The notes under the pieces were generated by a model that was not told the origin of the DNA, did not search any database, and saw only the letters and a program-made list of their open reading frames with translations. The position numbers and the translations under genes were made by a program. DNA of 47,716 bases from Candidatus Yanofskyibacteriota bacterium. Lineage in GTDB: Bacteria; Patescibacteriota; Minisyncoccia; JACQLN01. Positions 29,016 through 40,228 of the stretch are shown in pieces. Numbering within the stretch: position 1 is the stretch's first letter; every line of letters starts with the position of its first letter. The DNA lies in assembly GCA_943359335.1 (NCBI GenBank), contig CALRHC010000007.1:1-47716 (forward strand), in the 5' to 3' direction.

Positions 29016-29086
29016 CGGGGCGTCGTATATTGGTAGTACGCCTGTTTTGGGAACAGGTAGGCCGAGTTCGATTCTCGGCGCCCCGA
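29016..29086 (+). tRNA. tRNA-Pro (anticodon TGG)
   Basis: Acceptor CGGGGCG/CGCCCCG, anticodon loop TTTGGGA between CCTGT/ACAGG, T-arm CCGAG-TTCGATT-CTCGG; no encoded CCA. Confidence 0.95.
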
Positions 29087-29133
29087 CTGAACGAAGTGAA
29101 GGAGGGACGGAACACGACAATTTATTGTCGTGT

Positions 29134-29235
29134 GTTAGGAATCGAAAACCGGAGCATGTCCCGATTTTGACGAGGGACGCGAGGTGGGGTCGCGAGCGGC
29201 GAAGCCGACTTGTGACCGATTCTCGGCGCCCCGAC
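29134..29235 (+). other. Structured module ending in a copy of tRNA-Pro 3' end
   Basis: GTCCC/GGGAC stem, GGTCGC/GTGACC stem, then CGATTCTCGGCGCCCCGAC identical to 29069-29087. Confidence 0.75.
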
Positions 29236-29303: not shown

Positions 29304-29374
29304 GCGGGTATCGTATAGTGGTAATACCACAGCTTTCCAAGCTGTTGCTAGGGGTTCGATTCCCCTTACCCGCT
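29304..29374 (+). tRNA. tRNA-Gly (anticodon TCC)
   Basis: Acceptor GCGGGTA/TACCCGC, anticodon loop TTTCCAA between ACAGC/GCTGT, T-arm GGGG-TTCGATT-CCCC; no encoded CCA. Confidence 0.95.
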
Positions 29375-29430
29375 CAAAATGAAAATAATCCCAATGTAAG
29401 TTGGGGTTATTTTTGTTTATAGAATTGGTT

Positions 29431-29549
29431 TGGGGAAATCGAAAGCCGGAACGATGTGCCACCAAGTTGGCGGCACAGTGAGGCGGGGTCGCGACTTTGT
29501 TTGAGCGACGGCGAAAACAAAAGCTGTGACCGATTCCCCTTACCCGCTC
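29431..29549 (+). other. Structured module ending in a copy of tRNA-Gly 3' end
   Basis: GTGCC/GGCAC stem, GGTCGC/GTGACC stem, then CGATTCCCCTTACCCGCTC identical to 29357-29375. Confidence 0.75.
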
Positions 29550-39313: not shown

Positions 39314-40228
39314 GTGACTATAAAATCTCTATTCACCGATTACCTAAACCACCTAGAAATAGAAAAAAACCGTTCTAAAAAAACGGTGGAAAATTACGAT
39401 CGCTATTTAAGGCGCTTTTTCGATTACGCTAAAACCGATTCCCCTACCGGAATTTCTAACGATGTGGTTAGAAATTACAGATTACACTTGAACCGCATAA
39501 CACCTCCATTAAAAAAAATTACTCAAGCTTACCACTTAATTGCTCTACGTAACTTTTTAAAATATTTAGCCAAGCGCGATGTAAAAACTTTAACTGCCGA
39601 TAAAATAGAACTTGGAAAAGTTGGCGACAGGCACATAGACTTTTTAGAAAATGAAGAAGTAGAAAGATTACTAGACGCAGCCAACGGAAACTCTGTTAAA
39701 AATTTACGAGACAAAGCATTATTAGAACTTTTATTTTCCACGGGGCTACGTGTTTCCGAACTTTGTTCGTTAAATAAAGAATCGGTTAATTTAAAACGCG
39801 GAGAATTTGCAGTTCGTGGTAAAGGCGACAAAATTCGTGTGGTTTTTCTTTCCGAACCCGCAAGGCGTTCGTTAGAAAATTATATTTCTAAAAGACAAGA
39901 TATAGATGAAGCGCTGTTTGCCAGAGGAACAAGCGACAAGAAACAAGGTACAAGTAAGACAAGTAAAGATTTAAGAATTACACCTAGAACTGTTCAAAGA
40001 ATTGTAAAACATTACGCAACTAAAGCCGGAATTATAAAAGATATTCATCCACATACCTTACGCCACAGCTTTGCCACTGATTTATTAAGAAACGGTGCAG
40101 ATATACGCTCCGTTCAAGCAATGCTAGGGCACTCCAACATAACTACAACTCAAATCTATACCCACGTTACAGATACAGGTTTAAAAGAAATTCACAAAGC
40201 CTTCCACGCACGCAGAAGAAAAGAATAA
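39314..40228 (+). CDS. Tyrosine recombinase XerC/XerD family
   Basis: LLFSTGLRVSELCSL, HTLRHSFATDLLRNGADIRSVQAMLGHSNITTTQIYTHV. Confidence 0.95.
   Translation: MTIKSLFTDYLNHLEIEKNRSKKTVENYDRYLRRFFDYAKTDSPTGISNDVVRNYRLHLNRITPPLKKITQAYHLIALRNFLKYLAKRDVKTLTADKIELGKVGDRHIDFLENEEVERLLDAANGNSVKNLRDKALLELLFSTGLRVSELCSLNKESVNLKRGEFAVRGKGDKIRVVFLSEPARRSLENYISKRQDIDEALFARGTSDKKQGTSKTSKDLRITPRTVQRIVKHYATKAGIIKDIHPHTLRHSFATDLLRNGADIRSVQAMLGHSNITTTQIYTHVTDTGLKEIHKAFHARRRKE
39929..39965. repeat. 7-nt-period repeat array inside xer gene
   Basis: ACAAGCG ACAAGAA ACAAGGT ACAAGTA ag ACAAGTA. Confidence 0.85.

What the first reader, a model, noticed from the sequence alone, without database searches (positions are those of the whole stretch)
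29069..29235. tRNA-Pro followed by a structured module that ends in a second copy of the tRNA's own 3' end
Seen: 19 nt CGATTCTCGGCGCCCCGAC at 29069-29087 (T-loop to discriminator +1 of tRNA-Pro) recurs exactly at 29217-29235, 148 nt downstream. Between them lie a perfect hairpin ACACGACAA-TTTA-TTGTCGTGT (29112-29133) and a GC-richer module AATCGAAAACCGGAGCATGTCCC...GGGAC GCGAGGTGGGGTCGCGAGCGGCGAAGCCGACTTGTGAC. Established: duplication of a tRNA 3' end is the usual footprint of site-specific integration at tRNA genes. Inference: a very small integrated element, or an RNA carrying a tRNA-tail mimic. It is too short to encode an integrase.
Basis: partly seen in the sequence, partly recalled or inferred. 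Interest (0 to 1): 0.85.

Follow-up and report, generated by a model that had tools for sequence, protein, structure and literature searches.

The report
tRNA-tail-copying RNA modules
In many tiny-genome bacteria (and in a second phylum, Elusimicrobiota) a compact folded RNA of about 100 nucleotides sits just behind tRNA genes and ends in a faithful copy of the end of whichever tRNA it sits behind, an arrangement I found in no RNA library or paper and which may be a mobile, intron-like RNA that exchanges tRNA ends.

Summary
Both neighbouring tRNAs in the window, Pro and Gly, are followed by a homologous structured module that ends in a perfect 19-nt copy of that tRNA's own tail. The module is a three-way-junction RNA on the tRNA strand, with strong compensatory covariation. 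A model found it in 57 of 147 genomes of the class and 57 of 389 sampled across the phylum. A core-only pattern that ignores the tail also found it in Elusimicrobiota. It lies behind tRNAs of 18 isotypes and behind tmRNA. The copy runs from C56 to about N73. The module's 5' strand is complementary to the same T-loop/T-stem. In loci from families outside the window's class, 17 of 20 had their own tRNA's tail (swapped control 4 of 380). Cores cluster by genome, not by tRNA, so the core spreads or converts between tRNAs while its target-specific parts are rewritten. No Rfam family matches; limited paper searches found no description. I favour an RNA-level, intron-like tail-exchange element over a DNA integrative element or a tRNA-like ncRNA, but the mechanism is inference.

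The parts
29016..29087 (+). tRNA-Pro(TGG); tail 1 (C56 to N73 plus one base) = 29069-29087
   Evidence: ARAGORN and Rfam tRNA model
29088..29111 (+). trailer/spacer between tail 1 and the module
   Evidence: related trailers in G001, G002 and G004
29112..29133 (+). hairpin P0 (ACACGACAA-TTTA-TTGTCGTGT); a hairpin 0-4 nt before the module is common in the family, tetraloop mostly CTGC or TTTA
29137..29223 (+). type-1 structured module after tRNA-Pro: P1 29138-29143/29218-29223, P2 29148-29150/29183-29185, P3 29188-29196/29209-29217
   Evidence: CM hit; covariation
29138..29146 (+). 'guide' strand GGAATCGAA, reverse complement of the tRNA T-loop/T-stem TTCGATTC(C)
29217..29235 (+). tail 2: exact copy of the tRNA-Pro tail (junction X2 lies at 29216|29217)
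29304..29375 (+). tRNA-Gly(TCC); tail 1 = 29357-29375
29376..29421 (+). hairpin spacer between tail 1 and the Gly module (terminator-like by eye; the consensus scan did not call one on the + strand)
   Evidence: alignable in G002 and G003
29434..29537 (+). type-1 structured module after tRNA-Gly: guide GGGGAAATCG 29432-29441, P3 29487-29495/29523-29531
29531..29549 (+). tail 2: exact copy of the tRNA-Gly tail
   Evidence: conserved in four genomes of the genus

Best explanation
A previously undescribed family of compact structured RNA elements attached to the 3' side of tRNA and tmRNA genes. SHOWN: (1) a conserved three-way-junction RNA; (2) its 3' end is a copy of the adjacent tRNA's tail from C56 to the tRNA 3' end; (3) its 5' 'guide' strand is complementary to the T-loop/T-stem of that tail; (4) cores are shared among different tRNAs within a genome while guide and tail are tRNA-specific. 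INFERRED, most likely: it works at the RNA level like an intron or tail-exchange element. The tRNA body can pair with tail 1 or tail 2, and the guide can pair with tail 2 or tail 1, so the two T-loop junctions (U55|C56 of tail 1, and module|C56 of tail 2) are equivalent. Joining them removes everything between and leaves an intact tRNA, which is why the copy extends just to the tRNA end. Transfer of the core between tRNA genes would use the universal T-loop as target and acquire the new tRNA's tail.
For: Covariation: 94% of cells paired against 79% shuffled, 303 against 79 compensatory cells, slid controls 27-44%; repeated on 21 loci not used to build the model. Two P3 positions are G-U by norm on the tRNA strand and would be A-C on the other. 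The left edge of the copy is sharp at gtt|C in 58/81, the right edge near the tRNA end. Three loci with the junction shifted to about 71|72 copy only 5-7 nt, again just enough to complete the tRNA. Type-3 guides (GAACC) also pair with GGTT upstream of the junction, a sequence tail 2 lacks: the logic of an internal guide sequence that reads both exons. At tRNA-Gly, tail 2 is identical in four genomes although the core has been replaced and the spacer has diverged. Nearest-neighbour cores share the genome in 33/91 against 2.5 shuffled, and share the isotype in another genome little more than expected (8 against 5.3). G018 Arg and Glu modules have 98% identical cores but different tails. In the MFE of the whole Pro unit the tRNA 5' acceptor strand pairs with tail 2.
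Against: The tRNA is complete without any splicing. Many spacers hold a terminator-like hairpin before the module. The core matches no known ribozyme in Rfam and is far smaller than known self-splicing introns. Some tail copies carry a palindromic insert or have decayed, and changes at tRNA-paired positions of tail 2 keep pairing little more than chance (15 kept, 11.3 expected). At tRNA-Ala tail 2 has not followed a compensated T-stem change in tail 1. Within-genome similarity of cores could be gene conversion rather than movement. No RNA data exist here.
Confidence: 0.4

Rival explanations
1. A DNA-level, non-autonomous integrative element: a 120-170 bp cassette recombining at the T-loop of tRNA genes (att core = tail), moved in trans by Xer or by a recombinase no longer present; the fold is a single-stranded recombination site like an integron attC.
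For: Direct repeat of a tRNA tail is the classic att footprint; the copy ends at the tRNA end, as tRNA-restoring att sites do; tandem arrays occur (L185 three units, L063, L099, L104). In G001 a native-type tRNA-Pro trailer follows tail 2. Every one of 17 module-rich genomes has a tyrosine recombinase.
Against: In 17 module-rich genomes that recombinase is nearly always single, and in the window's genome it is Xer-like; Y1 transposases and RT are absent from several module-rich genomes. Conserved G-U pairs indicate function of the tRNA-sense strand. Guide and tail differ at every tRNA, unlike a fixed att site. No circle or clean empty/filled pair was obtained.
Confidence: 0.25
2. A tRNA-linked noncoding RNA that is not spliced: a tRNA-like RNA (acceptor strand copy, hairpin P0, T-arm-like P1, structured core, tail 2), matured by the tRNA enzymes, or a 'giant tRNA' whose acceptor stem uses tail 2, regulating or buffering its tRNA.
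For: A strand resembling the tRNA 5' acceptor strand precedes P0 in some loci, for example tmRNA loci L058, L065, L074, L084 and tRNA-Tyr L101 (10 loci with a 7-bp match against 3.0 expected, shuffle maximum 9). Conservation at the Ala locus stops just after tail 2 plus CCA. Tail 2 carries CCA where tail 1 does not in 15 loci against 3 the other way. The MFE forms this fold.
Against: The acceptor-strand copy is missing or weak in most loci, including the window; presence differs between close relatives (tRNA-Pro has a module in G000 and none in G002 or G004); cores group by genome rather than by tRNA.
Confidence: 0.25
3. An intergenic palindromic repeat or terminator family whose tail copies are by-products of local duplication and gene conversion, without function.
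For: Terminator-like hairpins in many spacers; tandem duplications; some decayed copies.
Against: Conserved covarying core across two phyla, strict strand and order relative to tRNA, and tail 2 kept through core replacement at tRNA-Gly.
Confidence: 0.07

Closest known systems
Group I introns in tRNA genes (internal guide sequence pairing both exons)
   Same: A short guide in the RNA is complementary to the sequence across both junctions; removing the insert leaves an intact tRNA; compact structured RNA; moves between genes.
   Different: Junction in the T-loop, not the anticodon loop; the tRNA is already complete upstream; about 100-nt three-way-junction core without a group I match in Rfam; target-specific guide re-made at each tRNA.
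Integrative elements and genomic islands at tRNA 3' ends (tyrosine recombinases)
   Same: Direct repeat of the tRNA tail from the T-loop to the 3' end; the tRNA stays intact.
   Different: 120-170 bp, no genes, many different tRNAs in one genome each with its own tail, covarying RNA fold, no dedicated integrase.
Integron gene-cassette attC arrays
   Same: Short structured site, tandem arrays in some loci.
   Different: Carries no cassette gene; nearly always tied to tRNA or tmRNA; three-way junction of about 90 nt; no dedicated integron integrase identified in the window's genome.
REP/BIME and IS200/IS605-type (Y1) elements
   Same: Short structured sequences, many copies, guide-to-target base pairing.
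   Different: The guide varies with the target; Y1 transposase absent from several module-rich genomes including this one.
tmRNA and other tRNA-like RNAs
   Same: In some loci acceptor-strand and T-arm-like helices with a hairpin in place of the D/anticodon arms.
   Different: Found downstream of ordinary tRNAs and of tmRNA itself; its tail copies the neighbouring gene; no Rfam tmRNA match for the module.

Membership tests
Known RNA families (Rfam 15) | Score at or above a family's gathering threshold over the module | tested here: not met
   only tRNA, tmRNA and rRNA; no module match at gathering score, and no convincing one at permissive thresholds
Group I intron | Group I catalytic core | tested here: not met
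   No Rfam group I match for type 1 even at E<=5; none at E<=1 for one type-3 module
Group I intron | Guide complementary to the sequence across both junctions | tested here: met
   Guide pairs with the T-loop/T-stem; type 3 also with GGTT upstream of the junction
Group I intron | Self-splicing activity | not testable with these tools
   Needs in vitro transcription or RNA-seq
Integrative element at a tRNA gene | Direct repeat of the tRNA 3' end at both borders | tested here: met
Integrative element at a tRNA gene | Encodes or co-occurs with a dedicated integrase | tested here: not met
   Module too short to code; usually a single tyrosine recombinase per genome, Xer-like in the window
Integrative element at a tRNA gene | Empty site with a single tail in a relative | tested here: inconclusive
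   tRNA-Pro has no module in G002 and G004, but flanks are too diverged to place the ends
RtcB-dependent tRNA intron | RtcB ligase present | tested here: not met
   RtcB in 9 of 57 module-positive against 35 of 90 other genomes; not found in this genus
Retroelement / DGR / group II | Reverse transcriptase present in the genome | tested here: not met
   Absent above cut-off from 13 of 17 module-rich genomes including this one
REP / IS200-IS605 | Y1 transposase present | tested here: not met
   Absent from 8 of 17 module-rich genomes including this one
tRNA-like RNA (tmRNA type) | Acceptor stem formed with its own 5' strand | tested here: inconclusive
   Seen in a subset only: 10 loci against 3.0 expected

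The most novel reading that the evidence does not exclude
A new class of small self-splicing or tail-exchanging ribozyme that targets the universal T-loop of tRNAs and tmRNA, replaces their 3' tails at the RNA level, and spreads among tRNA genes by acquiring the tail of each new host.
Probability: 0.3. Interest if true: 0.97.

Novelty: categorically new. Interest (0 to 1): 0.87.

Why it matters
A widespread structured RNA tied to tRNA genes in the Candidate Phyla Radiation and Elusimicrobiota, matching no curated RNA family, that re-specifies its target at each tRNA. If RNA-catalysed it would be among the smallest intron-like ribozymes and a new way of making tRNAs; if DNA-mobilised it would be among the smallest integrative elements, programmable by a tRNA tail. 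Either way some 20-35% of tRNAs in the two genomes surveyed carry a downstream tail copy that annotation overlooks, and the question can be tested with one tagged construct.

Tried and rejected
Chance or simple repeat: rejected by swapped-tail controls and covariation. Rfam at permissive thresholds: nothing convincing. Phage (distant blastn) and viral collections: no real match. RtcB-dependent splicing, RT-based retromobility and Y1 transposition: enzymes absent from module-rich genomes including this one. Origin of tail 2 from CCA-added mature tRNA: only a weak CCA excess (15 against 3), and many copies include the first trailer bases instead. Universal acceptor-strand copy upstream of P0: significant only in a subset; a looser test found none. 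Selection on tail 2 for pairing with the tRNA 5' half: not seen among the few substitutions. Paper searches returned nothing on this architecture, but they cover open-licence papers only and the hit lists were read at title/abstract level.

Full report
CHECK. The 19-nt tail of tRNA-Pro (29069-29087) recurs exactly at 29217-29235, and the hairpin is at 29112-29133 as reported. The next gene, tRNA-Gly, has the same arrangement with its own tail (29357-29375, copy 29531-29549). The two modules are homologous: AATCGAAA.CCGGA ... GAGGYGGGGTCGCGA ... TGTGACCGATTC.

GENOME. The motif TCGAAANCCGGA matches exactly at six places in the 592-kb genome, all behind a tRNA (Trp, Lys, Arg, Pro, Gly, Ala), each module ending in that tRNA's tail; Lys has one extra base, Ala one substitution, and Arg carries a palindromic insert. 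A covariance model (R1) adds a seventh behind tRNA-His and a weak hit inside a coding region that I discard. A survey without any model finds further tail copies, including tRNA-Tyr, Met and Lys(TTT), which have a different core ('type 3'). In the complete genome G109, 17 of 49 tRNAs score, against 3-6 in the three controls; a few of these hits rest on short or poorly parsed tails.

STRUCTURE. P1 joins the guide strand (for example GGAATC) to the first part of the tail copy; P2 is RCC-GGA..GA-GGY; P3 is GGTCGCGAC/GTTGTGACC; no unpaired base separates P3 from the tail copy. On 106 loci 94% of cells pair against 79% after shuffling, 19 of 20 pairs have double changes, and slid controls fall to 27-44%. 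On 21 loci not used for the model the result repeats (93% against 74%). Two P3 positions are G-U by norm on the tRNA strand, so the tRNA-sense strand is the one that folds. A hairpin (P0, tetraloop mostly CTGC or TTTA) commonly precedes the guide.

DISTRIBUTION. Model R2 hits 57 of 147 genomes of the class and 57 of 389 sampled from the phylum, 41 of them outside the class. No viral contig matched. The record behind G001, a genome of the window's genus, is titled Parcubacteria group bacterium (L227; the same contig as L051 by length and sequence).

THE TAIL RULE. Host genes are tRNAs of 18 isotypes and tmRNA (six loci). The copy starts at C56 (gtt|C in 58 of 81) and stops at the tRNA end or a few bases after it. 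Where the guide targets the acceptor end instead (L046, L119, L124), only 5-7 nt are copied, again just completing the tRNA. In 20 loci from families outside the class, 17 have their own tail against 4 of 380 swapped. In Elusimicrobia and other genomes with encoded CCA, the CCA is often copied too. 74 of 126 copies are perfect over 18 nt.

EVOLUTION. Cores group by genome, not by tRNA (33 of 91 nearest neighbours against 2.5). In G018 the Arg and Glu modules have 98% identical cores, unrelated spacers, and each its own guide and tail. At tRNA-Gly all four genomes of the genus have a module and an identical tail 2, but the window has a type-1 core and the other three an unrelated type-2 core, with an alignable spacer in two of them. 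tRNA-Pro has a module here and none in G002 or G004; in G001 a module ending in a Pro-like tail is followed by the native-type trailer, but its tRNA lies beyond the contig end. So modules are gained, lost, converted and retargeted, while tail 2 is kept at least at the tRNA-Gly locus.

MECHANISM. Three readings survive. (a) RNA-level tail exchange or splicing: explains the guide matching both junctions, the copy ending just at the tRNA end in both junction positions, the conserved core, and why tail 2 must stay correct. (b) DNA integration at the T-loop: explains the att-like repeat and tandem arrays, but several module-rich genomes lack RT or Y1 enzymes and have essentially only a Xer-like recombinase. 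(c) An unspliced tRNA-like RNA: supported in a subset by an acceptor-strand copy, by the conservation boundary after tail 2, and by the MFE of the whole unit, in which the tRNA 5' acceptor strand pairs with tail 2. I rank a > b = c. None is demonstrated. RtcB is not required.

KNOWN? No Rfam family and no paper in the open-licence library turned up by my searches. It works like, but is not shown to be, a group I-type intron or an att-bearing element.

Noticed in passing
L001 (tRNA-Tyr), L002 (tRNA-Met), L271 1360-1500 - strand (tRNA-Lys TTT): A different core (type 3: GAAGGGGTCGGGAAAC...GTTTCCCG.TGGCGGAAATATTAAAACC...) with the same guide/tail architecture; the guide GGTAGGAGTCGAACC is complementary to the whole T-arm.
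   Followed up: partly
L140, L141, L142 (tRNA-Gly in G002, G003, G001): Type-2 core (GAAGGGTA-hairpin-AACCCGGGCTTCGGAGGAG... or a close variant) at the orthologous tRNA, replaced by type 1 in the window.
   Followed up: partly
L003, L059, L089, L102, L105: A palindrome of the type CTGCCTGCCGGCAGGCAGG is inserted at the same point of the tail copy (TCC|C) in several genomes; a second short element that targets the T-arm copy.
   Followed up: no
L141 about 255-515: In G003 a tRNA gene appears split: a 5' half (GGAGAGTAGTATAGTGGG) and a 3' half (GAGTTCGATTCTCGGCTCTCCGACC) flank a segment holding tRNA-Pro.
   Followed up: no
L334, L033, L042, L078, L118, L121, L126: Orphan modules with no tRNA detected within about 650-700 nt upstream; L334 keeps only the last part of a tail 1 (cttggggtcacca).
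   Followed up: partly
L185 2641-2968; L063; L099; L104: Tandem arrays of two or three [tail-spacer-module] units of about 140-165 nt.
   Followed up: partly
L082 66-200: Short repeats of GTGACCGATTCC follow a module, as if the 3' junction had been amplified.
   Followed up: no
L240 (Hydrogenedentota MAG), L256 (Parachlamydiales MAG): Single hits in other phyla; could be binning contamination or transfer.
   Followed up: no
window 39314-40228 +: The only tyrosine recombinase found in the genome (Xer-like; above the cut-off of the XerA/integron-integrase model, below those of XerC and XerD).
   Followed up: partly
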